This document shows, piece after piece, positions 34,013-53,024 of a DNA stretch of 64,000 nt. Source of the DNA: Patiria pectinifera (taxonomy: Eukaryota > Echinodermata > Asteroidea > Valvatida > Asterinidae). Location of the stretch: positions 10,623,513-10,687,512 of the forward strand of contig CM057147.1 of assembly GCA_029964075.1 (NCBI GenBank), given 5' to 3'. The first letter of the stretch is position 1, and each line of letters begins with the position of its first letter. The notes below the pieces were generated by a model. That model was given only the letters and a program-made list of their open reading frames with translations. It was not told where the DNA came from and did no database searches. A program made the position numbers and the translations under genes.

Positions 34013-34021
34013 CAACCAAAT
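34013..34021. repeat. Left target-site duplication CAACCAAAT
   Basis: Nine bases directly outside the left TIR, identical to 53016-53024 outside the right TIR. Confidence 0.9.
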
Positions 34022-34085
34022 TAGTCTGGTTCCCAGACCAAAAGATTCCGACTATTCCTGATGAATCTTAGGTCAGGCAGCCTCC
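34022..34085 (+). repeat. Left TIR of the DUF6589 transposon
   Basis: Perfectly inverted relative to the right end for 51 bases, then four differences in the next 13. It starts TAGTCTGGTTCCCAGACC, which is itself nearly palindromic. Confidence 0.92.
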
Positions 34086-34223
34086 ACCGACAAAAATAGA
34101 TCATGACGCAATGCAGGCGGCGCAGCTATTTTTAGATGCAGTGCCCTGCGAGTTTGTTTATGTATGGCCAGGTTTTAACTCCGAGTTAGACGCGCGAAAT
34201 TGGAGAAGTTTCCGACTGTCAGT

Positions 34224-36038
34224 ATGCAAAAAACACCGAAAAAAGGTTTGGAAAGTGAGATGAAGTGTGTGGCATGTGGGGAAAACGCAAAAGAAAGCAG
34301 AGCTTTACACAGTGCAATTGGAAAACAGAAAAACTTGTCGCAATTACTAGAACGTTTCGGTGGTGTAAATATCGTTTCGGGCACACTATGCAGGAACTGT
34401 GAAAGACGTATGCTGATGATCAACGAGAAATGTGCTCTATTTTATAACATGTGCCAGAAGACTCTGTCAGTAGGAAGGTTTAAGAGATTACATGTAGTTA
34501 AATCCCCTGCCAGTGAAGAGACTCTTCCTAAGAGGCAGTGTAGTGAAACCCATGATCATGCTGATCGTAGTAGGCAAATTCGACAGGCATTGGGCCCACA
34601 AAAATGGCCTTCTCCTTCTAAAATCCCTGTGCCAGTCGGTGTCAAAAGAAGTGGTGTGCCGAAGTCTAAAACAGAGCAGAAAAGTGATACAAAGTCTTGT
34701 TTTTCCACCTATAAATCACCAGACACAGGACTGCCCCAACATGTCTCCCAAATCCCTGTTGCTATCACTTCACCACGGCCCATGCCATCAGGCTCCCCTT
34801 TGAAGTCAACTACCAAGCAGCCAACAGTATGCCAGACATTATCATTCTCAAATACCCAGTTGCAATCGGGGACCCATGCCAATCAAGCTAGCAGTAGATA
34901 TCAGTCCATATCACCTCCTTCACCTCTGGCCTCCAAAATCCCTGTTGCTATCACTTCACCACGTCCCATGCCATCAGGCTCCCCTTTGAAGTCAACTACC
35001 AAGCAGCCAACAGTATGCCAGACATTGTTCTTCTCCAAAACCCAGTTGCAATCGGGGACCCATGCCAATCAAGCTAGCAGTAGATATCAGTCCATATCAC
35101 CTCCTTCACCTCTGGCCTCCAAAATCCCTGTTGCTATCACTTCACCACGGCCCATGCCATCAGGCTCCCCTTTGAAGTCAACTACCAAGCAGCCAACAGT
35201 ATGCCAGACATTGTTCTTCTCAAATACCCAGTTGCAATCGGGGACCCATGCCAATCAAGCTAGCAGTAGATATCAGTCCATATCACCTCCTTCACCTCTG
35301 GCCTCCAAAATCCCTGTTGCTGTCACTTCACCACGTCCCATGCCATGAGGCTCCCCTTTGAAGTCAACTTTCAAGCAGCCAACAGTATGCCGGACATTGC
35401 CATTCTCAATTACCCAGTTGGAATTGGGGAGCCATGCCAGTCAAGCTAGCAATAGATCTTGCACCAAAACTCCACCTTCACCTATGGACTCCAGGATTTC
35501 TGTACCTGTCCATCAGACCCCTGACAATTCTAGGATGCTTGCTGAAGATGCTCTCTTCTCACTAACCACTGATTCCTCTCCTCCTGTAGCATCTCACTCC
35601 TCATCTCAACCAGTAGCAGACAACCGCAGCAACCAAAAAGCTAAAAGGTCTTCACAACTTCTAAGTCCATTACGAGACCACTCATACTCGGCCAGCAACT
35701 CAAATCTTCGAGCACATTCATCAAAGTCAAACCCAAAAGGGAATGAGCATAGGATAACTGATTCCAAACCTGCGAAACACAGGTATAGAAAGAAACCAAA
35801 GCCAAGAGGGGTGTACCACGAAAATTTGACTAGTATTGTCAGCAGTGCCACGTCCGCCTGTAATACACCGGACAGACTGACAAGTAGCGAGGTTCACAAG
35901 ATCCGATCACTGTCAGCTGAATCCGTAGAAAGGTTAGTGGTATACATGCTTTCTATTCCAACTCTTAGAAAAACTTTGCTTCGTGCCATCACAAAAGAGC
36001 AGGACAGAAAGGCCGCATTGGCAGGAAACAGAAAATAT
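34224..36038 (+). CDS. Exon 1, first part: Cys-pair motif and 62-residue repeats
   Basis: The N-terminus has CVACGE (about residues 14-19) and, about 40 residues on, LCRNCERRM. This is a C-x2-C...C-x2-C arrangement as in ZAD-like zinc domains of insect and transposon-derived proteins. Residues of about 176-375 are tandem repeats, and the remaining ~230 residues are Ser/Lys/Pro-rich, probably disordered, ending with SSEVHKIRSLSAESVERLV. The frame continues past the TGA at 35346 for 230 more codons without another stop, so the nonsense change is recent. The reading frame is cut at the ATAT target site of the Ty3-type element (36035-36038). Confidence 0.8.
34751..35490 (+). repeat. 186-bp (62-residue) tandem repeats in exon 1
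   Basis: Unit starts (AATCCCTGTT) are at 34751, 34937, 35123 and 35309, exactly 186 bp apart. The first three units are almost identical and the fourth diverges after about 35370. Each encodes a Ser/Pro/Gln-rich unit with SPRPMPSGSPLKST and SRYQSISPPSPLAS. The whole-codon period shows selection on, or origin within, a coding frame. Confidence 0.92.
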
Positions 36039-36606
36039 TGTAGCGCAATGCATTTTATAGAGGGCGCACTTTAGTTATTTACTGGTAGCCAGCGGGGTGC
36101 GCGTGCACTCACCCAGGTTTATGGGGGCACCAGCAAATAGCGCCAGTGTATATAAGCGGCCACGCGCTCAGCTTCGCCCTCTTCTGCTGTGGCCGGAACC
36201 CGAACGCGGTCTCAGGAAAAGTTGCACTGTTCTAATCTCCCACAATTAACCAATCACCCATAGTCACAGTGGAGGGAGCCTCATACTTTGTGTGAGTGTA
36301 ATTGATAAATGATTCCTGCATCATAATCCAGATAATTATGTATTCTCGTAGGCGAGGCGCCTGGGTAGGCGAATAAATATTCTTCCGAAACACGTATCTG
36401 GTGTCAGGTCCCCATCCTTCCCCAGTCCCCCTGGTTAGTCCGATTGGGTTGTGTGAGCGAGAGTGCGTGTGTAAGGGTGATCCTTTGGTAGTCTGCTGCG
36501 GGCCTGGCGGTAAATCTCCTCCGAAACGGATCTGCGTACCCGACCGTAGAGGCTAGGCCGTTCGCCGCTACTCGCCGGGCTAGTCGCACGAGGCAGTACC
36601 GCTACA
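36039..36606 (+). repeat. 5' LTR of Ty3-type copy 2
   Basis: 568 bp, highly similar to the 3' LTR but lacking a ~38-bp segment present there (about 41988-42025). It has a TATATAAGC box (about 36148) and GAATAAATATTC (about 36370). Confidence 0.9.
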
Positions 36607-36609
36607 ACT

Positions 36610-36627
36610 TGGTGTCAGAAGTGGGAT
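36610..36627 (+). other. Primer binding site, tRNA-Leu type
   Basis: TGGTGTCAGAAGTGGGAT is complementary to the CCA-ended 3' terminus of eukaryotic tRNA-Leu species. It lies three bases after the LTR. Confidence 0.8.
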
Positions 36628-36690
36628 AGGCGCGGTTGCTTCACTGCTAAAAATCACCCCAACAATCTACAACTACCACTATTAACCAAC

Positions 36691-38108
36691 ATGGCCGCCG
36701 ACGAGATATTCGTGGAGGACGAGCTGATGTTGCTGCGAATGGACGTGCAGAAGGGCGAGGACGAGTTACAACAATCCCTTGCCGAGAACCGCGATCTGAC
36801 AGAGATCAAGGAGTTGCTTCTGGCGCAGAATCGCCTGTTAAGATTGCAGCTTCGCCAAAGTGAGGCCAAGTCAGAGGCAGCACAGCGGAGGGCAGATAAG
36901 ACGCCCAGTACGTCGATGACGACCCAGTTCGGCAGCCGTGAACTTTTCACATTCACAGACACCCCTACACCAGTACCATCACCAAGGCCTACCCCCAAAC
37001 CCAGAACGAGATTCTATAATCCCGTTGCACCAGCGCCTACGCCAGGGTCTACGATAGGCAGTCTAACGAAGTTGACGCCTACTGGTCATTCGACCGCATG
37101 CCGGCAGCCGGGGACCCAAGCAGGAGTTCCGTTGCAGTCTGTGAAAGACGCAAGCCAGAGGGAGGGCGAAAACTACCCGGACCTTCAAGGAAAGGAGGTC
37201 GAAAACAAAGGAGAAGTTGGGGTGAAAAGTGAAGTGGATGTTCCTTCCAGACGTCCAAACATCATCCCCGACAGATTCAGCGGGAAGATCCCGTGGCGAA
37301 ATTACAAGCAGCATTTTGAGGCCTGTAAATTGGCGAACATTTGGAGTGATCGCCAGGCGAGAGTGTTTTTGGCAGCGAGCCTGCAGGGTGATGCGGTCAA
37401 GGTGCGGTCAAGGAAATCTAGCAGCAGGCGGTAGTCAAGTGACTTACACTGAGTTGGTTGGGCTGTTGGAGAAGCGGTTTGGCCCAGGAGAGCTTGCAGA
37501 AAACCACCTAGCGGAGCTGCGGCATAGGCGACAAAAGCCTAAAGGGACGCTGCAGGAATTGGGACAGGCGATAAGGCAGTTGACTTCACTCGCCTACCCG
37601 GAAGTGTCAGAGGAGGGGCGTGATCGCCTAGCCAGGGGGCACTTCTCTGATGCGGTGGAGGAACAGGCTATCCGGGAAGGGATCTTTCGAGCAAGACCGT
37701 CATCACTGGACGAGGCTATCAGAGCTGCACTAAACACTGAAGGGTTCCTTAAGATAGAGGAACAGCGGGCTGGCCAGCGGCCCAAGTACGCCCGAGTAGT
37801 AGAGGGCGATGCCCAGTACCCCTTGGAAGAAATCAAGCGGGAGATGAAAGAGTCGGCTGAGAAAAATCAACGCGAGGTGAGGGAGTGGCTGGAGAAGATG
37901 ACACAGCGACTTGACACCCTCCGGCCTCAAGAGAGGAGCGATCGTTCGAGTGCCGCCTACAAGAGGCGAAAACCAACCCCAGAGGACGTTTGCTTCAGTT
38001 GCAAACGAAAAGGACATTTTGCAAGGAGTGGCAAACAACCCAGCGCAGAGAAGAAAATGAAGGTCAGCAGGAACAGCAGGGCCAGAAGGCGCCGTAGAGT
38101 ACCGCGCC
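36691..38108 (+). pseudogene. gag of Ty3-type copy 2 (frameshifted)
   Basis: The ATG at 36691 (AACATGG) opens a frame to 37434: a coiled-coil-prone Leu/Glu/Gln-rich N-terminus (residues 1-70), a Pro-rich linker, then the start of a capsid-like segment (IPWRNYKQHFEACKLAN). Around 37400-37430 a short GCGGTCAAGG duplication shifts the frame. The second frame carries on with capsid-like TYTELVGLLEKRFGPGELAE and later CFSCKRKGHFARSG, a CCHC zinc knuckle whose last Cys is lost. It ends where the LINE was inserted (about 38109). Gag packages element RNA; this one is broken. Confidence 0.75.
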
Positions 38109-39845
38109 GGAGAGAATTTAGGTGAGAAGAGTGAAGGCGACAAAGAAACATCACCAAGAGCAAGTAACGTTTTAAACAGTTTTTTTGAGTCCGTCTTCAC
38201 CCATGAGCCAGAGGGAGATGTACCTGAACTTGACCCTAGGCATGAGGGGGAACTGTTGACAGATTTTGAATTTTCAGTTGAAGATGTCAGAGAGCAGTTG
38301 CTGAAATTAAAGAACGACAAATCACCAGGCACTGACAGTATCCACCCACACGTGCTAAGAGCATGTGCAGATGAACTAGCACGTCCACTCTACATTATCT
38401 ACAGGAAATCGCTAGATGAGGGCAAGCTACCACGAGATTGGAAATGTGCAAGAGTTGTTCCCATTTACAAGAAAGGTGCCAAGAAGAGCCCCGGAAATTA
38501 CAGGCCAGTGAGTTTAACTTCAGTGCCGTGTAAAATGATGGAAGCCATAGTGAAGCAGTGGGTCCTTAGTCATGTGGAAGGTCTGGATTTGTTAACCAAA
38601 GATCAACACAGCTTTGTGAAGGGAAGATCATGCCTCACCAATCTGCTTGAGACATTCGAAGAAGTCATCAGGATGGTAGATGAAGGGGGCGGAGTGGACA
38701 TTATTTACCTTGACTACTCCAAAGCCTTTGACTCTGTCCCGCACAGAAGGATGCTGTCCAAGTTACAAGCGTACGGAGTGAAGGGCAAAGTTTGGACATG
38801 GATCCAGGATTTTCTGACAGGAAGAGTGCAAAAGGTATCTGTGGGTGATGCGGAATCAGACTGGACCAGCGTGGCAAGTGGAGTGCCCCAGGGCTCTGTC
38901 CTGGGCCTCATCCTGTTCGTTTTGTACATAAATGATCTGCCAGAAAATGTGAAATCAAACGTAAAAATGTTTGCAGATGACACCAAATTGTACAGGCACA
39001 TGGTTGATGAAGAAGACAAGCACTCGCTCCAAGAAGATCTCAACGCACTTCATAAGTGGTCCGAAACCTGGTTGCTGAGGTTTAATGCAAGTAAATGCAA
39101 GCGTATGCACATGGGTAATACCAACAAGGGAACATCTTATCATCTGGGCAATGAACAGATACCTCACGACAGTGAAGAGAAAGATCTAGGAGTCTATATA
39201 ACAGAGGACTGTAAGACCACCAAGCAGTGTGCAACAGCAGCAAGTAAGGCAATGGCTAATCTAAGAATAATCAAGAGGACATTCACACACTACGACAAAA
39301 AATGCTTCACTACCCTCTACAAGACATACATTCGTCCACACCTTGAATATTGTATCCAAGCATGGAGCCCAAGTCTCAAGAAAGATGTGACGGTGTTAGA
39401 AAAGGTACAGCGTAGGGCAACCAAGATCATTCCAAGCTTGAAAAACAAAACTTATACAGAGAGATTATTGGAGTTGGACCTGTACAGTTTGGAAGCAAGA
39501 AGACAACGAGGTGACCTGATCGAGGTTTATAAGATCCTAAACGGCTTGGAAGGCATTGAGGAGAGCAAGCTCTTCCAGAGACACGACAACCCATTCCAAG
39601 TCAGAGGTCACAACCTAAAGCTCTACAAACCAGGATTAAAGAAAGGGTTGAACTGCAGAAAAAACTTCTTTTCCATCCGAGTTATTTCTGAATGGAACAA
39701 CCTCCCATCCCATGTGGTGAATGCAACCTCAACAAACCTGTTTAAGAACCATCTTGATGCCTACTGGAAAGAAATTGGATATGGGGTCACAAAGGCTTAG
39801 CCTATTCTATTCCCATCAACCTAAGTAAGTAAGTAAGTAAGTAAC
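38109..39845 (+). mobile_element. 5'-truncated CR1-like LINE inserted in the Ty3-type element
   Basis: A single open frame of more than 550 codons runs from about 38109 to the stop at 39798-39800. It begins inside the finger region of the RT and has the classical order: KSPGTDSIHPHVL, NYRPVSLTSV, IYLDYSKAFDSVPH (catalytic Asp), SGVPQGSVLG, KMFADDTKLY (catalytic Asp pair), and the tail FFSIRVISEWNNLPSHVV. The endonuclease domain and 5' end are missing, as usual for truncated LINE insertions. A (TAAG)n tail (39823-39845) marks the 3' end. The RT frame has no stop, so insertion is recent relative to the other remnants. No clear target duplication was found. Confidence 0.9.
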
Positions 39846-41219
39846 ACAGCGGGCAATGGCCTATTCGTGCAGGCTATTGTGAGAGGAGTCAAAGTTAGAC
39901 TTCTTGTTGACACAGGGGCAACACACACTGTGTTGTCGTCTCAATTATATTTCGACATTTCCAGGGACCGCAGACCAAGGCTCATGACCGCAGGCGCAGG
40001 AGTAAGGAACGCTGATGGGAGCATGATAGAAACACTCGGTAGCGCATGGGTAGAGCTTCATGTTGGCAGAACAACTTGCTCAACTAATGTAGTCTTCGGC
40101 AACACGGGTGAAATTCAAGGAATATTAGGAATGGATTTCCTGCTTCAAATTCAGGGCACCCTAGACTTCCGGACGTTAAAGCTGAAATTAAACGGGGAGA
40201 TAATTAAGTGCACAGACGGCTTGTCACGTAAGCCACAGAGCGATGAACAGGCAGAAGTGCCAACGCTGACGACACCTGTAGGTGACGTGAGGAGTGTGAC
40301 CATTTCGCCTACCATCACTTGCACGGAGATAAGAGAGGCGCAGATGGAGGACACATCAAATAGCAGGGTGCTTAAGGCCAAAGAGGAGTCGACAGTTAGA
40401 CAATGTAGTGTCTGTGCTAAGTTAAAATCCACGGCCAAGGCTTGGAAGGCGCCGCCACAGCGGCCCAATAAACAGACAGCAAGGAGAAATGGGAAAAACA
40501 TGGAGGAGAAGAGTACACCTCGTAATCATTCTGATGGGGAGAAGACGAAGTGTCCAAAGTGTGGTCTGCAGCTGCACAAAAGAAGTCTGGAGAGACATCT
40601 GGCAGGCGAGCATGGAGAGAAACAGGTTTTCTTATGCCGTAGGTGTTCCCACAGAAACAACAGGCGAGACAATCTTAAAGCACACTATCGTGATTGCCAT
40701 CCGGCACATGTAGATGAGGTGGCAAACATCCAGAGTGAAGCGTACGAGTCCAGCAGGCGAGACAGGAGTCGAGGTGAAGGTGAGCCAAGGCGCATGGAGA
40801 CTCCGGGGAGCCGTGACCGTGTCGATGTAAAGGTGACAAGGCGAGCTTCCCCTGAGAGGAAGAGGAAGCCGGAAGGAGCCACAGGCAAGCGGCATGGAAG
40901 TAAGGCTATTCCAGAATGGAAGCCTATCAAGAAGCCCAGAAGAAGTGATGCAGTACCCTGTACTGTGTCCAAGGCACCTGAGGATGAGAAAGCTCTACCT
41001 AAAGGCGCGGAGGCGAAGAGAAGTCTTTCGAAATCAGCACGACCCCCGATGATCAACGAGGAGCTTGAGAGGAGCATGATCAGGAACATTACCGAGATAA
41101 CAGAAACGGAGACGCACAGCGTTTACCAAGAAGGAATGCTGGTGACGAAGGACCAGACCGAGCGGGTGTACCATGTGAATTTCCTGGCAGGAGTTCGCCA
41201 AGATGAACATAAACATTGA
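39846..41219 (+). pseudogene. Protease, pol scraps and C2H2 fingers of Ty3-type copy 2
   Basis: The frame is open from the LINE junction to a TGA at 41217. Residues 1-115 form a retropepsin-like aspartic protease: RLLVDTGATHTVLS (catalytic DTGA at 39909-39920) and GILGMDFL near its end. Then TDGLSRKP (about 40213) is the motif that joins RNase H to integrase in Ty3-type pol, and CSVCAKLK (about 40405) fits the last two Cys of the integrase HHCC finger. RT, RNase H and the integrase core are deleted in frame. Two C2H2 fingers follow: CPKCGLQLHKRSLERHLAGEH and CRRCSHRNNRRDNLKAHY. The rest is a basic, Arg/Lys/Ser-rich tail. The fingers are unusual in a Ty3-type element. Confidence 0.75.
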
Positions 41220-41329
41220 ACTGTAGGCGGGCAAATAGAAAAGATATCTGCGCCTTTTGTTAAACCTAAAGCCATGTTGTTTATCTTCTATATAAATGTT
41301 GCACCTAAGTTTTGTGCCTCAAAGTTCTC

Positions 41330-41510
41330 GTTAAGGTTTATATCAGAGTTTTAAAGTTGTTAGATTTATGATGCTGTTAAGGTTTATCAAACAGTTTTAA
41401 GCTTGTTCAATTTGTAAAGATGTTAAAGTTTATCTCAGAGTTGTAACCTTGTTCTTTAAGTCAAAGTTTAATGCCAAAGTTTATTTAAGAAGTTTAAACT
41501 TGTTGAGGAG
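41330..41510 (+). repeat. Degenerate ~55-bp repeats before the 3' LTR
   Basis: About four loose copies of AAAGTTTATCTCAGAGTTTT...CTTGTT lie in the untranslated stretch between pol and the 3' LTR. No gene is present in 41220-41677. Confidence 0.6.
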
Positions 41511-41677
41511 AATCACCTACTAATGTTCTAAGGCGATAGTCATGTAGGTGTCACTAGGATTATCACTGTAAAGTGCAGCAGACTTTTGGAAGTAATTTGA
41601 TTTAGAGATAATGCATTGCTTTTATTTAAGTAATCAGCTTTGAGGTCAGGGGCTGACCGAAACTTGGAAGGCGCCTG

Positions 41678-42286
41678 TGTAGCGCAATGCATTTTATAGA
41701 GGGCGCACTTTAGTTCTTTACTGGTAGCCAGCGGGGTGCGCGTGCACTCACCAGGTTTATGGGGGCACCAGCCAATAGCGCCAGTGTATATAAGCGGCCA
41801 CGCGCTCAGCTTCGCCCTCTTCTGCTGTGGCCGGAACCCGAGCGCGGTCTCAGGAAAAGTTGCACTGTTCTAATCTCCCACAATTAACCAATAACCAATC
41901 ACCCATAGTCACAGTGGAGGGAGCCTCATACTTTGTGTGAGTGTAATTGATAAATGATTCCTGTATCATAATCCAGATAATTATGTATTCTCCGAGTTGT
42001 AAGGGAAGTGATTGAGTATAAGATCACGTAGGCGAGGCGCCTGGGTAGGCGAATAAATATTCTTCCGAAACACATATCTGGTGTCAGGTCCCCATCCTTC
42101 CCCAGTCCCCCTGGTTAGTCCGATTGGGTTGTGTGAGCGGGGGTGCGTGTGTAAGGGTGATCCTTTGGTAGTCTGCTGCGGGCCTGGCGGTAAATCTCCG
42201 TCGAAACGGATCTGCGTACCCGACCGTAGAGGCTAGGCCGTTCGCGGCTACTCGCCGGGGCAGTCGTACGAGGCAGTACCGCTACA
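41678..42286 (+). repeat. 3' LTR of Ty3-type copy 2
   Basis: 609 bp from TGTAGCG to CGCTACA, near-identical to the 5' LTR apart from short indels. The tract before it (AAACTTGGAAGG) is only a weak polypurine tract. Confidence 0.9.
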
Positions 42287-42569
42287 ATATGATAGAACCT
42301 ATCTCATGAAAAAGGACTACCAGGATCTGAAGTCTCTTAATTGGGGTGCTGTTGTTCAGGAGTTCAAGGAGAATTATCCCGATATTTTCCACTTGGTATT
42401 AAATCTCATGCTCACACCCAAACAGAGATCCTCCATTCAGAAACTACAGACAGTAATGCCAAGACTTGGAATGGTGTATGCTATCTGTATGCAGACAAGA
42501 ATTCGAGAACTTAGCCGGATACAAAGAATAGTATCCATGCTTCTCATGGACCACATTTGTGACCAAAAG
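42287..42569 (+). CDS. Exon 1, second part (after the LTR insertion)
   Basis: After the duplicated ATAT the frame resumes exactly where it stopped at 36038. It continues through MKKDYQDLKSLNWGAVVQEF and IQKLQTVMPRLGMVYAICMQ to a donor AAG|GTAATT at 42569/42570, ending in phase 0. This helical segment commonly precedes DUF6589-type domains. Confidence 0.8.
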
Positions 42570-43807
42570 GTAATTTATTTTCCCTTTACACATCATAAAA
42601 AAATGAGGCCAAATGTACATTTCTACATGGGAATTTATGTTCAACAAATTGCTCATTCAGCATAGAAAGAAATGAATTAGAAATATTGATAATTGAGTAT
42701 TGAAAATCTGAGTCAATCAGATCCCCAATGCTCCAATATTCCAGTATTGGTCTTCAAATTAAGTTTGGCACAGTGAATTAAGAACATTAATGTTATGTAC
42801 TTGATTCTTTTAAAAAAGTGCCCAAATCAATGTATGGCTATCCTTTATTTCATGAGGATTAATGTTTGATTTAACAATTTTTTTGTTGAAAATGTACATA
42901 ATGCCATACAATAGAAATTAATAAAATCAGTGCGTTGAGACACTGTGAATCAGCGTAAGCCTAAAAAACTGTATGTTGCAGTAAACAAACAAAGATGGAC
43001 TACATGGTTACCTGTGAAACCTTCAATGAAACATTGCTTCCTAGTCCCAAAGGAGCACTTTATATCAAATTAAGTTCATTTGGCCTGATTTTTTTTCTCT
43101 AGACACTTGGTACTTACCACACTTCAGCTGCTGAACCTGGTTATTAATTTAAAAAAAGAGAGAACACAATCATCTACACGTTCAGATGGAGCTCCTTTCA
43201 CCTGTAAATGATCAAACTTTTTCCCTGATCTGTTCTAGAGTTAACATTTTATACACATCTTTGCTGAAACAAAAATGATACAGGATTGATAGTTGGTGGT
43301 GAAAATGTCATGATTATCATTCACAACTGCTGAATAATTACATAAGATTTTATCCAGGATGAATGTTTATGGCTCTGTGATTATCATGCTAAAAGATTTA
43401 TGTCCCACTATAACAGAAACATGCACTGGACAATGTGTTAAAGCCAAATCAGCAAAAAGTAATTGAGTGGTGATTGCATTTTGAGGCCACATTTTAAAAT
43501 ATTTTAACAGATTTTTGAGAGATTTTAAAAGATAACATTTAAAGTCTTTTTGCACAAGCTTCTCAGGTGCAGTGCAGCTGGTAATGTTTAGGAAAATACT
43601 AATATTAGCCCCTAATATTTACATGTATATAGGGACTCAGCAACTGCTACTTCCATGGTAGACACTTAACTGTGTTACCAAGGTAACCATTAAACCACAA
43701 TTGTTTAGGGTACATGTAGGTTAATAGTAATAGTCCAGTGGAATATTTATATCATTTTGTCAATTGCATAACACTGAAAGTGAACTAAATCTCAACTTTC
43801 TTTACAG
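42570..43807 (+). other. Intron 1 of the DUF6589-like gene
   Basis: 1238 bp, GTAATT...TTTACAG, AT-rich, with no gene or repeat that I recognise. Confidence 0.7.
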
Positions 43808-44895
43808 GTATTCGACAGACTGCACCCATTTGGGAGTGTGCATTAATTATTCCACCAGCCTTCGAGTGATGGAGATGATTGGTGGCCATTTCAACAGTGA
43901 GCTAATTGACTTGGTCAAGAGAGGGAAGCGATTTCGGCTCATCGGAGACAACGTGAATTGGGCAACTGGGGTTCATGATGAAAGAGTGACTCGCCAGAGA
44001 GGACATATGCACCACGCATTTGCCTCTGCTGCCCTAACTCAAGCAATGGATTTCGCGGACAAGTCAGTGTCATCAAGGCCACAAAAAGATTGTGCTCAAG
44101 TATCTGTCATGGACTTCATCCCCAGCAAGGATGAAATTAGGGAAATAAGAAATGAGTATGCTATTTTGATCACCCACACAGCCACCAGGCTCATTCCAGC
44201 CTTTCATCATCTAAAGAAACTCATTCCATCCATCGAATCAGGTGAATACAGTGACCGCTCAATGGAAAGGACAAAAGTCATCCCACTGCCAATCTTGTTC
44301 AAAAATGAACAATACTATGCCCAGGTTGTAGACATATTGGACTTTTATGAAAAATTCCTGGCAGATACATACAGATCAGCAAAGCAACCACTGCAAAAAG
44401 TTCACATTGGAGGGGATCAGCTCACTCGTGAACGATTTTCTGGTGCTAACAGACTTAGGGCAGACCATCAGACTGCTAGTGACAAGTTTGAGCATTTGTC
44501 CCCTATCACATTCGAGCTGTTCCACCTTATGATGAACTTTCTGTCCATGATGTTCAAGCAGCTGTACAAGGTGACCAGTAGCAGAGAACTGGGTACACTG
44601 AAGTCCCTCCAAGACCGCATAAGAAGGACAAAAGTAAAAGAAGATGTCAAGCTGGCATATGATGCTGATAAGGATTTCCTTGTCTCAGCTGTCAACGCAT
44701 ACATTTGTGAGGCTGCCTTGGAATTGTTTGGGATGGAGACTGTGTATGAAAATCCCAAAAGGCATGCGCCACCAGCAGATGCCACAGAAGAAGAGCTAAG
44801 TGTATGGTTCATGGAAAAGTGTCAACTCATGGTGGACGAAAATGTACTGGACACCTTAGAGGACAAACTGCTAGACCAAGAAAACAGTGTTGAAG
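43808..44895 (+). CDS. Exon 2: DUF6589-like core
   Basis: After one extra C (run 43825-43827) the frame is open to the donor GAAG|GTAAGC. Motifs are RLIGDNVNW (about 43936), KVIPLPILFKNEQYYAQVVD, VHIGGDQLTRERFSGANRL (about 44400) and FELFHLMMNFLSMMFKQLYK. They match the layout of DUF6589 proteins of fungi and invertebrates (GDN, then GDQLT-x-R, then a helix with FHL-x-MN). The two invariant Asp in strand-like contexts resemble the first acidic residues of an RNase H-fold DDE transposase; that is inference. Confidence 0.8.
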
Positions 44896-45263
44896 GTAAG
44901 CAAATACAAGAAAAGGGTTTTAAAAACTTCATTTTCTGTACTACTCCACCATGCAAGTACATGTACATGTTAGAAGAATACAAAACAATGACAACTGTTT
45001 GCATTAGAGCCGTGGAAAAATCTTTGTTAGCTGTTTCAAACTTTGGTAAATCAATTACATTTGCTTGTGGACTATTTTTGGCCCTCTTAGTTTGTGATTT
45101 ATTTATACTCATTCCCTAAAAACATATTGGGCACAAAGTGTGTGTCAAAATTGACTGTCAAAATTTTAAAAAGACAATGTTGTGTTGTTCTTTTTTTAAC
45201 CATAGAAATGGTAAAGTGTTTGGATTGACTTTGTATGCTACAATATTCTTTTTTTTTTGGCAG

Positions 45264-46015
45264 TTGAAGGACATGCTCTGACTGTCACAACAACTGATGG
45301 AAGGCTGGTTCAACTGTTCATCAGACATCATCAGCACAACAGCAATAGCAGTGATGATAACCTAGACCATGTGAAGAACTATGGCCATTTGATTCTTGAA
45401 TTAGGGCTACTCTTTAAAGATTTGACAGAGTTGATCCACCTTCCAGATAGGAAGAGGGGACTGAGAGTACTCAAGTTAACAATGGTGTACTTCCAGGCAA
45501 ATAACAATCTTTCAAAATACGCCTATGAAATTCTAAGATTCCCTGTGCATCAGGAATGCACACTGTCAGAAAGACAAGCCTATGAGTCCTTTTATGGCCT
45601 CTTTGTCAACACAAAGAGAAAAGTAGACTCCCATATTCCTGCTGATCTCCAAATGGAGTACATTGTTAAGATGACAAAGCGTCACATAAAACATATGTTC
45701 TCCAACAAAAATGAGGGTAATGTGACCAACAGAAGTCGAGCTATTGCTGGTATTAGTGAGATTGCCGATAATTTTGATCATGTGACAAGTGTTTTGATCA
45801 GATCAAAGAAACACGCTGACATATCAGCTGATGCAGACGAGCTTGATATGCTAGAAGATTTACGCCAGATCCGTCCATTTTCAGTTGATCCAGGAAGAAA
45901 ACATGAGTCCTTTAAACGCATTCCAAGAAGCATGGTGAACTATCTGAACATTCCACACTTTCATGACTGGATTTCAACCAAAAAGTATGAATTTGCAACA
46001 GAACTAGGAAATTAG
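45264..46015 (+). CDS. Exon 3: C-terminal part of the DUF6589-like protein
   Basis: Acceptor TTTTTTGGCAG at 45263, joined in phase 1 to exon 2. It is open for 250 codons to a TAG at 46013-46015. It has acidic and aromatic segments (LGLLFKDLTELIHLPDRKRG, MVYFQANNNLSKYAYEILRF), typical of the all-helical end of these proteins. It ends with a short tail FHDWISTKKYEFATELGN. Confidence 0.8.
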
Positions 46016-47087
46016 GATAACCTACTGACTGTCACCTTCAATTGAGTGTAAACCTGTTATACATTTTCAAATTTATTTTGTGATTGATTTTTCAAAGGGC
46101 CAAAAAGTGCATTTTTTTGTGGAATAGAAAAACTAATGTAACATTTTATAAGATTGTATAAGATGGCATATCTGCAAGTGATGGATACATTTTGTCACTG
46201 AACACATATCTTACGTAGACCCTTCCCTAAACCATGTGCAAGAATGGGTCAAAGAGTGAACTTTGATGGTGATGTTAAAGCAACACTTGCATCTAAAATA
46301 TGTGGGGGGTCAAAATGAAAAGACTTTGTTTTTTGGACCTTGAGTAATGTTCAAATGCATTGCACAGGATTGGTTTTGGGGACTAAATATTTCAGCCAAT
46401 TCAACAACTTTCCAAAAAATTGTTTTGATGCCTGTTAACATGTAATTTTGATCTGCAATGTAAATTTCGGACATTGATTTTGCACAATGCAAATTGATGG
46501 GGGTTGATGTAAACACTCCCAATACATTGACTCCGGTATCCATGGTAAGAACTTGGACAGCCCCAAGTAAAACATCCCATTAATCCAAGGGTACTTTCTA
46601 TGCCTAGATTTTAAAAAAAATAACCAGTTTTCAGAAGCATTTTTTATTTTTGATAAGTTATGGTCTTATTTTTTTTATTCGAAAGGTCGTCAGTCACCCA
46701 GCAAGGAAATTTATACTTAAAGCTTGGAAGCATACGAACCATTAGTCTCCTTATACTTTGTCACTGTTTCATTATGATACATGGTACAAGGCTCCATAAA
46801 TAATGACTTGTGTCCATAGCATACAGATATTGACTCTTTCGAGTGGTACAGTGAAATGAGGTTTTTTGTTGAACATTTCACTTTCCTGAAGTGAAGGAGA
46901 GAACATTTGGAACTCTATATTAGTCACCAAGGGAGGCTATTGTCACCCATACCATGAGTTAAAGACACGCAATATTCATAGAGTGTGCTGAAATGCATTG
47001 GGTGAATTAAACAAAAAAACAATGTAAATCTACTTCTATTTAAAGAGAATGTACATCATTGGCTTTTGCTGTAATTTTCAAAAATAA

Positions 47088-47443
47088 ACTAGTTTGAGGG
47101 GTTAGTATAACAGATCAAATATTGTTACACTGACATGTTTCAAGTTTTGTGTTCGAAAATGCTGGGGGAAAAAAACAAGAAAAAAAAATGTTCAAGTAGT
47201 CTGGTTCCCTGACTCCACTAAAGATGAAATGGTTAAATTTAAAGATGCTGGAAAATTGTAAGGTAATGGAATCAGTCTAACTGGCCTGCACCCGTTCATG
47301 AACATGTAACCAATAGCAAACAAAATTAGGACTTTAAAAAAAAGGTACATTTGGAGCAGTAGTGGAAAAACAGTTAGGCTTTTCCAACGGTGGTCAGCCG
47401 ACCACCGTTGGAAATGTATACAAAATTTTTACCACTTTTCTTG
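47088..47443 (+). repeat. ~350-bp dispersed repeat, copy 2
   Basis: Near-identical to 26806-27156, with the same CCACCGTTGG hairpin near its end. The flanks differ, so both borders are real insertion edges or recombination points. Confidence 0.85.
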
Positions 47444-47698
47444 AAAATGACTTCACACCTGGTGCCACAATTTTACAGAATGCTTTTAGACCGTCATTTA
47501 CCAACATCCTAGTAAGGTATTTCTTAATAAAATGGTAGTTTTGTTTTTCGATGTTTGCAAATGTTGTACATGTATATCCTTTTAAACTAAGTATCAGTTG
47601 AAAATAACCTGGAATTTCCAACAACCACCCTCACAAAATGTTTCCTCACAGTTCTACAGCGCATTAGAACAATTCATGTACATTTTTTGTAGTTTTTG

Positions 47699-47820
47699 AC
47701 TGCTGTGATGTGGGACATGAGGTTTTTAACAACCGAGGGCCGCATAACACCCGAGGCGAAGCCAAGGATGCTATGCGGCCCTAGGGGGTTAAAAACGTCA
47801 TGTCCCACATCACAGCAGTC
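47699..47820. mobile_element. 122-bp near-perfect palindrome (foldback MITE)
   Basis: GACTGCTGTGATGTGGGACAT...ATGTCCCACATCACAGCAGTC, with an inner GGGCCGCATA...TATGCGGCCC and a short loop around CCGAGGCGAAGCC. It could form a single long hairpin. It lies midway between the 3' ends of the two genes. Confidence 0.8.
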
Positions 47821-48858
47821 AACAAATGTTTTGTTGTATACAACTCCTGAAAAAAAAACCCTGTCACCTGATTGGAAGATTGTTGATCACATGTCATTCA
47901 ATTATTTGTCCCAATCATGTATGGCGTGGCCGCACCACAAAAAAATGGAAGTCCTATTGCACGGTGAACATAGTGAATGGAACTTCCATTGCAAGGTTTC
48001 ATTATACACAAAAAAAGCAAGTACATGTACAATATGCTGCCAAACAATTAGACAAATTAAATATGATAGTTCTGCACTTGTCGGGAACAATTTTTAACTT
48101 GAACAAATTGGATATTGAAAGAGAACCAACATTTTTTTTTCTCAGGAAAACAGTAGAATATTGATGTAAGTACCAGTTTACAAGTCAGGCAATCAGATGA
48201 CAAGAATTTATTCAGGTGTTACCTAATACATATAATGAATGTTGCACATCCTTGCAATGGAAAGAATAATTTTCTTCGTTGAAAGATAGCATATTCCATG
48301 GCACTCGGCTACGCATCGTGGAATGGAACATTCCATCTGTCAACTCATGAAATTATTGTTTCTATTGCACTCGCAAACATTCACTATTAGTATAATATTG
48401 TGCAAATAACTCAAAAACGTAAATGGTTATAACAATACTGTGTGAGAAATAAATTAAATCACTGCAATGTAACTTTGGATAATTGAAGGTTTTGATGTCC
48501 CGGCAGACTGAGCATTTGACTTTGCAGTGCTTGGATGCTGTAATTCCATTGGTCTAGGATGGCCACTGGGTTCCATACGCGCGTGCAATATCACCCTCAG
48601 TGTGTGACATGCATTTTTTTATTGTCCAGACACCTGGCCAACCTAGACAAATAAAATTTCAGCATCCAAGCACAACAATTGGGTTTCTGGGCAGCATATC
48701 ATTAAATGCTACAAATTGCAAAATAATATCCCACTTTTTCTCAGAGAATCAAGATGTCGTATCCTCAACATTTCTCCAAAGTATTACATGTAGCCGACAC
48801 TGCCTCACAATCTTGGGCATGTTTGATTTGACTTGAGAACATTATACATACCGAAATT

Positions 48859-49397
48859 CTAGGCAGTTTGATAAAAGATATGAGCTTGACCGATGATTCC
48901 AACTATATTCTGAACAATGACATCATCCAATGTTGGGTACTTGGCTTTTAGTATACTGACTGTGCATTCCTTTCCGAAACTGGCTAGATCATTCACCATT
49001 TCTTCATTCAGATCCTCATATTCACACTCTGAAGAAAAGTATTGTTCCAACAAGTCTTTCAGTATGAGGTACATATCACTATCACCTCCAAAAGCCATTG
49101 ACACTAGCATTTCGGTGTCATCTTCTTTGTTGTCTGCATCCTGTTTGTTGGCACATTCCTCGCATTTGCATACAGCTGCACAGTTGTCACAACAGAGGTG
49201 CCCCGGTCCAGTTTCCTCAACGTCAAACCCAAAGAACTCGCAAAGTGATGTTCTTCGGCAGGAATCAGATCTGTAGTAGTCCCGGACTGCTGTAGTCATT
49301 CCAGGCTTGTTGGCAGCAATATCTGTACTGTTGAAATGGAGGATGGCCTCACAGTATTGACCATCTCGTCCAGCTCGGCCTATCTCTTGCACATATT
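48859..49397 (-). CDS. RecQ-like exon 4 (motif VI and zinc region)
   Basis: Acceptor GTTTACAG. It contains YVQEIGRAGRDGQYCEAIL with the arginine-finger region, then the Cys-rich zinc-binding region and an acidic stretch (DADNKEDDTE). It ends at TAG 48859-48861. Confidence 0.85.
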
Positions 49398-49457
49398 CTG
49401 TAAACATAAAGGAGAATCAATAAATAGTTTTTATAATACTGCCCCATCTTATTCAAG

Positions 49458-49831
49458 CATGGGTGTCAATCGGGGGGGGGGGGGGGGTTGTTACTTTTGC
49501 AATTGGGTGGGGGATCATATAGTTTGGTACCCCAACCCACTTTTTTCATCCCTGAATAAAAAATGTGGCGTACATTTGATTCTATATTTCTGAATAGCTG
49601 ATTCAATGACTCCAAACTAGAAAGTGTTGTTCAAATGATTACAGTTTGTAAAAAAAAATTTTTTAAAGTGAACGGAAATCGATTCAGATCACACAACAGA
49701 GCGTCTCAAATCTGAGGCCCTTCAGCAGGCATGGAAAGCCAGGCCCGTTACGGCTTCGCGTTGCGTACTGGCATTTGCACTGATCAAGGTATATATCCCC
49801 CCTCACTTTTGAGTAGCAATTTACACCCTTG
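49458..49831. mobile_element. hAT-type MITE, 374 bp, in a RecQ-like intron
   Basis: The ends are CATGGGTGTCAATC and (inverted) CAAGGGTGTAAATT. A perfect 8-bp target duplication TATTCAAG flanks it (49450-49457 and 49832-49839). It has a poly-G run inside and no gene. It lies in the intron between exons 3 and 4. Confidence 0.85.
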
Positions 49832-50064
49832 TATTCAAGTACTGATTTGTATTAATTTTTGTTACTAATCTTTGGACTTATAACTAGCTGTGGTGCTGGC
49901 ACCCCAACCAACAAGGACATTTAAATAGTGAATGTACACATGTATTCACATGTTACGTGCTAAATTGTGATACAAACAGGAGCGTAGCATCTATTTTATT
50001 TGTCTGTTACATATTCCATCCTTGCACTGATGTAGACATTTCATGTCAATAGAATTCCACTCAC

Positions 50065-50202
50065 TTTCAAGGGAAGATGGGGGCCAATGTGTATCACTCT
50101 TCTGATATCTGGGGCATCGGTGCCCATAGTATAAGCCTCTGTTGCAAACAGAATCCTGGGTCCATCTTGCCTGGCGATACTTTGAACAGTCTGTTTCTTC
50201 AT
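50065..50202 (-). CDS. RecQ-like exon 3 (motif V), one base short
   Basis: Acceptor CTGCTCACAG, donor TTGAAA|GTGAGT. It encodes RILFATEAYTMGTDAPDIRR. The run of C in coding sense (50079-50083) is one shorter than the conserved frame needs; read literally it shifts frame into a stop early in exon 4. A sequencing error in the homopolymer cannot be excluded. Confidence 0.7.
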
Positions 50203-50995
50203 CTGTGAGCAGGAAATTACTTTTCATCAGTTGTTAAGCATCAAGAAAAATATATTTTGGTCGTTCCATAAAATTTGGGGTCAAATTTTGGTGTGTCCTT
50301 GTTACATCGGACGTGTTTAAGATTTGTACTTCATGACATATTCTTTAATGCCTTCCATGCCCAAGAGTGAATGTGTAAACAAGTCCCTGCCAAACAAGTA
50401 AAATACCTTGAAGTCAATTTTATGATACCTTTATGGTAAATTAAACAGGTCAGGTGTAACAGGGACACCCCAAACAGTCACACTTTTTGACCCCAACATT
50501 TATGGAACGACCCACTTGCAATCAGTCTTCCTGAAGTAAAAAAGCAATTACAAAAGCTTCAAATACATGATGTACTTGCTTTGAAATGGCAAGACCTTAT
50601 CACTAACCATCATATGAACAGTAGTGAATTTGAAATTCATTTGGTTGACAAATTTCATTTGAATCTACCTACTACCAGAGGGAAAATTTGTAGTCTCAGT
50701 AATGTTCAATGGATCATTAAATTACTGTGAATAATACAAGAATATTTAAAAATCTTGGTAAGTACATGTAAACATAGGAAAATAGCCATACACATGTACA
50801 AGCCCAGTCAGTGACTCGGTGTTAGTGATGCCAATAATCAGCCCAATTGAAGTCGATCGTGCACAAACGATCCTCCTTTATGTGCATAACTATATCAACA
50901 ACACTGATATTTTTCATACAGTGGAGGTGGTCTGTTAAACCTTGCTTTCATTACATTTTATGAACTGAATCAATGGCCCTCATAAGTGAAGTTAC

Positions 50996-51590
50996 CTCTT
51001 CTTTACAAGCAGCATGGTACTGACAGACCAGAGTGGCTGGAACTGTCCTAACACATTGCTCGTACCCACTTCCACAGTTCTTGAGATTACTGTACACAAT
51101 TGTTTTCTTGAAGTTGTCCCTCTCCTGATCGAGCTCCTTGATAAGGGGGTCCAGAACAGAAGCAAGTGATGACTCTGTAGTACTTTTTCCTCCAGTTACG
51201 GGGGGCCGTTTGTGCACGATCAACTTCAAGTTGGACCGATCGATATTGGTGGCAACTATGTGACAAGATTTCATCTGCATCGTCTTGCAGATTTCATCTC
51301 GGGTACTAACTGTCGCTGTAGCCGTCATAGCCACTACTTTTGCACGGGGAAACCAAGATAGTAAAACGGGCAGTTTTTGGAAATCTTTACGGAAGTCTCG
51401 GCCCCATTGTATTATGCAATGTGCCTCATCAACAATGATGTGTGATACCTTCTCCTGCCAGCATTTGTTGCGGAAGGTCTCCTCCTTCACCAGATCTTCA
51501 GGGTGCCCGATCGCGTAGGTGTACTTGGCCTCCTGAAAGAGATGGTCCCTCTTTGCCCCTCCTTTTACCTGCACAGCATATTCTCCATAC
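50996..51590 (-). CDS. RecQ-like exon 2 (DEAH, motifs II-IV)
   Basis: Acceptor TGCATTGCAG, donor GAAGAG|GTAACT. It contains YTYAIGHPEDLVKEE, VSHIIVDEAHCIIQWGRDF and the TATAT motif, then FKKTIVYSNLKNCGSGYEQC at the start of the second RecA-like lobe. Confidence 0.85.
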
Positions 51591-52442
51591 CTGCAATGCA
51601 ATAAGTAACAATATATCTTTCAGGTACCCTTTATGTACATATATAAGTACATGGTAAATTATTTCAGGAACTACACATGTAGCCTACAAAGTACAATGTA
51701 CATCCCTACTACTACTACAATTTCAAGTTAACGAAAGTCTTGTTTCAATGACAGGCTTTATTATTGATACCAGAAATTAAAAATATAATTGAAGTGATAT
51801 TTATAAGTGATTTTATATATTTTTCCCATTGATTTTAAATCACGATTTAAATTGAGTGACCAAACAACCCTGGTTTTTGTGCTACATTGTAGTTTTAGTG
51901 CTCCTACAAAATGTGGCTGGTCTTGCTAGTCCGAAAATTTGTGACTCTCAATACTACAAAGGTGTCCCCTTATTCCACTTGCAAGATTTATCTCAGATAA
52001 CACTCTAACATTTAAATTGGCTTCATTAGGTGATTCGTTTAGGTGATTTCGGCATTATGGCTAAAAAAGGGACAGATGTTATCCAGACATTGCCATACCA
52101 GACATAACTTTTTTGGTCTTGTTCATTGTTCAAAGTCTGTGCACGACTGTCGTCAACTTTTCCCAAGTAGGCCTATTTTTTAGAACAAAAAGATGGAAAC
52201 GAATTGGCAAGGGGCCGGCTAGCAAGTAGACCAGTCTCATCATACTTCATCATACATGTCATACTCATAGGCAGTTGAAAGGGTTTGTGCACAGGAATGA
52301 CAGGGTGAGATGTGGAAATCTTTCCCAAATGTGACATGCATTATCCTAAAGGTACACTGCAGCTGGTACTTGGAAACTCTGACTGAGGATGAGGTTCAAA
52401 ATGTTAAGCAATTACATAGCATATTATAGTATTATACACTAC
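51591..52442 (-). other. RecQ-like intron 1
   Basis: 852 bp, no recognised feature. The intron between exons 2 and 3 (50203-50995) is likewise empty. Confidence 0.6.
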
Positions 52443-52750
52443 CTGTTAATCTGCTCCTCGATGATTGAATTCAACGGAGTGCATATTATTACCGCACTGG
52501 CATGACTGGAACTTGACATCAATGGCAGCATTTCAAAAATCAAACTCTTTCCATATCCGGTGGGCAAAACTGCCAAAACATCGCCTTCCATCGCATGTTT
52601 CAGACACATTGATTGCAGTGGCTTTAAATACTGATATTTGACATTTCGCCTTCTGTTGATTTCCACCAGTGCCAGCTTCGACTTCAAAGAAAACTGAAAA
52701 ACATCTGGATCGACACTTTTGACACTGACAGACATGTTGTTCACGGCCAT
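52443..52750 (-). CDS. RecQ-like exon 1 (Walker A)
   Basis: Starts at ATG 52750, 265 bp from the right end of the transposon. It contains MCLKHAMEGDVLAVLPTGYG with the nucleotide-binding Lys, and ends at ATTAACAG|GTAGTG. A 16-codon upstream frame begins at an ATG about 50 bases earlier and overlaps this start in another frame. Confidence 0.8.
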
Positions 52751-52951
52751 GACAAATCCACACTGTATACTGTATCTATTCCTTCCTCCATGATCTAAAC
52801 TTCATTCCGGAAATACTCGAACATCGCGAACGTTAACGAAAATATCCGAATGTCAATACAACGTGTTCGGCAAACTTCGGTCAGTTTCAGAAAAAGGAGG
52901 AATTCCTCCCGTTTTAGTCACGTGATGTAAATTGTAATACCTTGTATTACC

Positions 52952-53015
52952 GGAGGCTACCGGGCCTAAGATTCATCAGGAATAGTCGGAATCTTTTGGT
53001 CTGGGAACCAGACTA
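52952..53015 (-). repeat. Right TIR of the DUF6589 transposon
   Basis: Inverted copy of 34022-34085, ending CCAGACTA. Confidence 0.92.
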
Positions 53016-53024
53016 CAACCAAAT
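53016..53024. repeat. Right target-site duplication CAACCAAAT
   Basis: Identical to 34013-34021. Confidence 0.9.

What the first reader, a model, noticed from the sequence alone, without database searches (positions are those of the whole stretch)
34013..53024. A complete-ended ~19-kb DNA transposon carrying a DUF6589-like gene and a RecQ-like helicase
A 51-bp perfect TIR starting TAGTCTGG, a perfect 9-bp target duplication and two convergent spliced genes that start 202 and 265 bp inside opposite ends define one mobile unit. DUF6589 is a domain of unknown function; here it sits where the transposase should be. RecQ helicases are not a usual cargo of cut-and-paste transposons. The combination may be an undescribed or poorly described superfamily. 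I cannot check repeat catalogues.
Basis: partly seen in the sequence, partly recalled or inferred. Interest (0 to 1): 0.92.

Follow-up and report, generated by a model that had tools for sequence, protein, structure and literature searches.

The report
AcademH-type DNA transposon with RecQ helicase
This is a large but broken "jumping gene" that fits a kind already described (AcademH), which pairs a transposase with a DNA-unwinding enzyme; the useful extra is evidence that an unnamed protein domain, DUF6589, is its cutting enzyme.

Summary
In detail: 51-bp perfect inverted repeats, a perfect 9-bp duplication (CAACCAAAT), and two convergent genes starting 202 and 265 bp inside opposite ends. The interpretation needs three corrections. 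(1) The "19 kb" includes a 6.25-kb LTR retrotransposon in exon 1 of the DUF6589 gene; the element itself is about 12.7 kb. That gene also has a stop and a frameshift, so this copy is dead for transposase. (2) RecQ cargo is not new: RecQ helicase in Academ is in print (PMC3627910), and AcademH is described as helicase-bearing with 9-10 bp duplications (PMC10045372). Of 20 independently flanked gene-less relatives here, 17 show 9- or 10-bp duplications with at most one mismatch. (3) DUF6589 is very probably the transposase: conserved D-D-E triad, and a modelled fold closest to P-element, Hermes, Transib and RAG1 (Foldseek alone was not significant). DUF6589 and this helicase share a contig in 5 of 10 species listed with both. 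No second full-length copy was found here, and comparison with a Repbase Academ protein could not be run. I file it as a new member of AcademH.

The parts
34013..34021 (.). 9-bp target-site duplication, left (CAACCAAAT)
34022..34072 (+). left 51-bp terminal inverted repeat
   Evidence: similarity to genomic copies extends to base 91 of the element at most
34224..36038 (+). DUF6589 (transposase) gene, exon 1, 5' part: Cys-rich N-terminus, 186-bp x 3.8 in-frame tandem repeats (34745-35457), in-frame stop near 35346
36039..42286 (.). nested LTR retrotransposon inserted in exon 1 (ATAT at 36035-36038 and 42287-42290); aspartyl-protease frame and a reverse transcriptase frame (38061-39800, LINE-like by eye)
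42291..42569 (+). DUF6589 gene, exon 1, 3' part (continues the frame once the insert is skipped)
43808..44895 (+). DUF6589 gene, exon 2: first D (GDN, codon 43947-43949) and second D (GGDQLT, codon 44415-44417); frameshift near its start
   Evidence: homologue P0004 reads through the same place in one frame
45264..46015 (+). DUF6589 gene, exon 3: E (ADLQME, codon 45656-45658) and stop
52443..52750 (-). RecQ-like helicase exon 1 (ATG; motif I GYGKS)
50996..51590 (-). RecQ-like helicase exon 2 (DEAH, TATA motifs)
50065..50202 (-). RecQ-like helicase exon 3 (motif V); its 3' junction does not keep frame with the nearest GT-AG pair and is unresolved
48859..49397 (-). RecQ-like helicase exon 4 (motif VI QEIGRAGRDG, Cys-rich region that aligns with WRN's, then a C-terminal tail)
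52965..53015 (-). right 51-bp terminal inverted repeat
   Evidence: similarity to genomic copies extends up to 173 bp inward
53016..53024 (.). 9-bp target-site duplication, right (CAACCAAAT)

Best explanation
A ~12.7-kb two-gene DNA transposon of the AcademH lineage, later split by a 6.25-kb LTR retrotransposon. Inferred working: the DUF6589 protein is a DDE transposase. It binds the ends, perhaps through its Cys-rich N-terminus, cuts the element out with an RNase-H-fold D-D-E active site carrying a large helical insertion, and joins it to target strands 9 (sometimes 10) bp apart, which gives the duplications. The element's own RecQ-type helicase probably unwinds or remodels DNA during excision, or during gap repair at donor and target. 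Gene-less derivatives with the same ends have been moved by the same transposase. Shown: ends, duplications, genes, conserved triad, modelled fold of a homologue, same-contig pairing in some other species. Inferred: catalysis, end binding and the helicase's step.
For: Ends and 9-bp duplication. D, D, E kept in 49 of 49, 60 of 60 and 49 of 50 ungapped rows of 60 aligned DUF6589 homologues, all three present in the window. AlphaFold2 model of homologue P0004, pLDDT 86.8: first D in a strand, second D just after a strand, E in a helix, 278 residues between second D and E. VIA-align ranks 1-30 of the 50 shown are all P-element, Hermes, Transib, RAG1 or ISCth4. 39 other scored copies of the left end: 34 two-ended; 20 of these in their own flanks: 9 exact 9-bp, 3 exact 10-bp, 3 nine-bp and 2 ten-bp with one mismatch, 3 without a clear duplication. 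35 of 37 loci tested carry both window ends at opposite sides. DUF6589 and helicase homologues share a contig length in 5 of 10 species listed with both. AcademH: 9-10 bp duplications and helicase; RecQ in Academ.
Confidence: 0.87

Rival explanations
1. A separate, unnamed superfamily: DUF6589 is a DDE transposase unrelated to Academ that independently acquired a RecQ helicase.
For: No paper in the held library contains the word DUF6589 (0 papers). No Academ reference sequence could be compared. A RecQ helicase is also found in KolobokH, so independent acquisition happens.
Against: Meets the stated AcademH features that could be tested: helicase and 9 or 10 bp duplications (11), RecQ (71). Of the 29 DUF6589 hits with an organism name 22 are bivalves (39), where Academ is abundant (44); this is weak, since 4 are gastropods and 3 hemichordates.
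Confidence: 0.09
2. The helicase, not DUF6589, drives movement, and DUF6589 is an accessory or captured host gene.
For: DUF6589 is formally of unknown function. The DUF6589 gene is broken here, while the helicase exons are open except for one unresolved junction.
Against: RecQ enzymes are not known to join DNA ends (recalled). DUF6589 has a conserved triad and a transposase-like modelled fold (70, 114). Inverted repeats with fixed-length duplications are typical of DDE enzymes (recalled).
Confidence: 0.03
3. It belongs to another known superfamily (Mutator-like, KDZ/Zisupton, hAT or KolobokH).
For: 9-bp duplications are typical of Mutator-like elements (recalled); KolobokH has a RecQ helicase.
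Against: No Mutator, KDZ or hAT Pfam model was listed for the DUF6589 exons. Kolobok gives 4-bp TTAA duplications (40), not seen here.
Confidence: 0.01

Closest known systems
AcademH lineage of the Academ superfamily (Kojima 2020, itself not seen; known here through passages of PMC10045372 and PMC10799480)
   Same: DNA transposon with inverted repeats, a helicase gene besides the transposase, 9 or 10 bp target duplications
   Different: No difference found in the features tested; sequence similarity to a reference could not be tested, and whether this family is already catalogued is unknown.
KolobokH (passages of PMC9587614)
   Same: DDE transposon with a RecQ helicase
   Different: TTAA 4-bp duplications; a different transposase family; stated to be found only in fungi
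P element and hAT (Hermes) transposases
   Same: Best-ranked folds for the DUF6589 model: RNase-H-type core with a helical insertion between second D and E (the architecture of the known ones is recalled)
   Different: No sequence similarity to any solved structure at E <= 1; duplication of 8 bp (recalled)

Membership tests
AcademH | Helicase encoded together with the transposase | tested here: met
   RecQ-type helicase inside the ends; same contig in 5 of 10 species listed with both
AcademH | 9- or 10-bp target-site duplications | tested here: met
   9 bp in the window; 17 of 20 independently flanked derivatives 9 or 10 bp with at most one mismatch; definition from a passage of PMC10045372
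AcademH | Terminal inverted repeats (recalled as a feature) | tested here: met
   51 bp perfect
AcademH | DDE transposase (Academ listed among DDD/E superfamilies in PMC9587614) | tested here: met
   conserved D, D, E and transposase-like modelled fold of a homologue; catalysis itself not tested
AcademH | Sequence homology to a reference Academ transposase | not testable with these tools
   no Repbase; Kojima 2020 not held
AcademX | 3-4 bp duplications, nuclease instead of helicase | tested here: not met
   duplication is 9 bp; no XPG nuclease model listed for the frames scanned
KolobokH | TTAA 4-bp duplication | tested here: not met
   definition in a passage seen
Mutator-like / KDZ / hAT | Family transposase domain in Pfam | tested here: not met
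   no such model listed for the DUF6589 exons; PF20231 matched exons 2 and 3. Exon 1's repeat region matched only Phage_spike_2 (26 bits, cut-off 25), taken as chance

The most novel reading that the evidence does not exclude
DUF6589 plus RecQ defines a DDE transposon superfamily of its own, with a P-element/hAT/RAG-like catalytic fold, that only converged on the AcademH layout; the Pfam domain still labelled unknown would then be the signature of an unrecognised transposase class, some members of which may have been domesticated as tandem genes without inverted repeats.
Probability: 0.09. Interest if true: 0.7.

Novelty: new member of a known kind. Interest (0 to 1): 0.33.

Why it matters
It gives a likely function to Pfam DUF6589, a label that 60 of 60 aligned homologues match and that many sources list as "uncharacterized". 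It supplies a conserved D-D-E triad for bench tests, and it gives a source element for a repetitive family of ~0.7-kb derivatives in this genome (1,230 and 1,274 first-look candidates for the two ends, 40 scored each). It does not add a new superfamily.

Tried and rejected
A new superfamily was considered and set aside because AcademH fits. A DUF6589-XPG fusion (a link to AcademX; the XPG feature is recalled) was sought: the last protein search, with alignment A2, was badly posed (words come from the first 500 residues, poorly conserved in its first member) and returned only that member itself. Long-frame DUF6589 relatives in this genome show no XPG model. A literature search for Academ with XPG and transposase found no paper. 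Viral contigs and prokaryote genomes gave no relative by tblastn (71 and 72 pattern matches, none confirmed). Profile search of solved structures by sequence: nothing at E <= 1. VIA-align rows span model residues 101-648, so no claim is made about the fold of the N-terminus; the long N-terminal part of the window's protein was not modelled.

A group of 14 derivatives with the TSD GCGTTTAGT first looked like target preference. Their nearest flanks agree on both sides, and a 110-bp joined flank found pieces that stop at the junction, never an uninterrupted site (58 matches, 40 of 82 candidates scored). I count them as one site, an insertion spread with a host repeat. Against a single event: three of the 14 are longer (712-717 against 656-673 bp), some outer flanks differ, and a crude orientation test put one (L046) the other way round, so a second insertion at this site is not excluded. 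An earlier count gave 13 for this group; 14 is the recount. The window's own empty site could not be tested. Own-genome scans for PF20231 and XPG did not complete.
Full report
What is in the sequence. The left end is at 34022 and the right end at 53015. The terminal 51 bases are identical in inverted orientation, and CAACCAAAT lies on both sides. Total length is 18,994 bp.

Nested insert. LTR segments 96.2% alike (316 and 264 bp) belong to LTRs that begin at 36039 and end at 42286, with ATAT on both sides. Inside are frames with Pfam aspartyl-protease models and a reverse transcriptase (the latter reads like a LINE's, by eye). The insert lies inside exon 1 of the DUF6589 gene: skipping it and one ATAT gives an uninterrupted frame across that point. 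Without 6,252 bp the element is about 12.74 kb. The DUF6589 gene also has an in-frame stop near 35346, in a 186-bp x 3.8 tandem repeat, and a frameshift at the start of exon 2, where homologue P0004 reads on in one frame. This copy therefore cannot make a full transposase.

The two genes. DUF6589 exons: 34224-36038 plus 42291-42569, 43808-44895, 45264-46015. Pfam PF20231 matches exon 2 at 1.2e-22 and exon 3 at 2.4e-14. Helicase exons on the minus strand: 52750-52443, 51590-50996, 50202-50065, 49397-48859. The joined protein matches DEAD (2.7e-19) and Helicase_C (1e-13), not Pfam's RecQ zinc-binding model, and recQ_fam (2.3e-60, 204.7 bits, cut-off 219.8). Among solved structures the best matches are WRN, RECQ1, RecQ and BLM. 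The exon 3-4 junction is unresolved. The exon structures are predictions from splice signals and homology; no transcript was available.

Copies in the same genome. The left 101 bases give 1,230 first-look candidates, 40 scored; the right 100 bases give 1,274, 40 scored, the best others 97-98% identical. I read the 39 scored left-end matches other than the window's own (for three the locus was used). 34 are two-ended, 534 to 1,224 bp, median 711; 5 are one-ended in the stretch read. Of the 34, 14 share near flanks and are counted as one site (L042 is put there by its flanks although the script labelled it otherwise). The other 20 have 9 exact 9-bp, 3 exact 10-bp, 3 nine-bp with one mismatch, 2 ten-bp with one mismatch, and 3 no clear duplication. 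In 35 of the 37 loci given to (L017 and L018 left out), the left and right parts of the window element sit at opposite ends in inverted orientation (median 87 bp at 90.8% and 172 bp at 88.3%); ten pieces from the element's interior gave 2 hits in all. The genes are rare: the helicase exon has one exact copy and 6 weak matches. DUF6589 exon 2 has one other close copy, a fragment on contig 7, about 81-91% identical in DNA, and 13 distant matches. No second full-length copy with both genes was found.

Other genomes. I count ten species named for both kinds in those tables; in the other five (Mytilus edulis, M. galloprovincialis, M. coruscus, Pecten maximus, Haliotis rubra) the listed lengths differ. 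The 118-kb contig is the strongest case; for chromosome-size contigs chance is not small, and distances are unknown.

Trees. On 9 transposases and 18 helicases that I chose, both trees join Mya with Mercenaria (100/100 and 100/98), and in both the window's nearest rows by path are Mytilus and Ptychodera. Support for the window's group is 93/97 in the transposase tree; in the helicase tree window plus Mytilus has 97/94. Neither tree settles Haliotis and Saccostrea cucullata. The element-type helicases stand apart from four bacterial RecQ and three arthropod WRN rows (100/100), but one coral row that I had picked as a WRN falls on their side on a very long branch. Few host RecQ proteins were included, so the origin of the helicase is open.

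Literature. PMC3627910 (passage) states that RecQ helicase in Academ had been reported. PMC10045372 (passage) states that AcademH gives 9 or 10 bp and AcademX 3 or 4 bp duplications and ties the difference to helicase versus nuclease. PMC9587614 (passages) describes KolobokH and lists Academ among DDD/E superfamilies. PMC10294476 (passages) reports bivalve abundance of Academ. PMC10799480 (passages) mentions AcademH helicases in fungi. PMC12210899 and PMC12730594 (passages) added nothing on structure. Kojima 2020 itself was not readable. No held paper contains the word DUF6589.

Verdict. A member of AcademH, transposase-dead in this copy, with a probable assignment of DUF6589 as the Academ catalytic domain. 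The host was not identified; the 613.5-Mb assembly of 1,020 contigs is unnamed.

Noticed in passing
window 36039-42286: LTR retrotransposon with aspartyl-protease and reverse-transcriptase frames; by eye the reverse transcriptase is LINE-like and the element's own polymerase region seems mostly lost, so it may be a defective element with a LINE inside.
   Followed up: partly
L070 1-8001 (contig 10, 11388500-11396500), L059, L062-L065, L067: DUF6589 proteins with long open frames (663-1,208 aa), 21-23% identical to the window's, three on contig 10 about 4.3 kb apart. Two (L063, L067) have a weak PHD match inside the domain, below its cut-off; by eye GDN reads CDS in L070. In L070 the only inverted repeat found is a short 79% one. 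Possibly domesticated or another element type.
   Followed up: partly
L058 1288-2679: Another DUF6589 frame (5.1e-26) with a BED-type zinc finger inside the domain stretch (8.9e-05, above its cut-off).
   Followed up: no
contig 7, 19.036-19.057 Mb (L053-L055, L069, L013, L057): The second close DUF6589 fragment has, about 5.4 kb further on, a weak helicase-like match (37 aa, 46%; frame with stops) and, at 19056454, a distant DUF6589 match on the other strand: possibly remains of related elements.
   Followed up: partly
L016, L020, L021, L023, L024, L026-L028, L031, L032, L037, L038, L042, L046: Fourteen ~0.7-kb derivatives with the same near flanks and TSD GCGTTTAGT, in a repeat rich in ACGTACGT; no empty site among the scored matches.
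   Followed up: partly
window 34745-35457: In-frame 186-bp x 3.8 tandem repeat (62-residue unit, Ser/Pro-rich by eye) in the transposase N-terminal half.
   Followed up: no
window about 34263-34440: Cys-x2-Cys pairs at the N-terminus of the DUF6589 protein; 3 of 60 homologues match zf-AD weakly (best 0.004), the window's own N-terminus does not.
   Followed up: no
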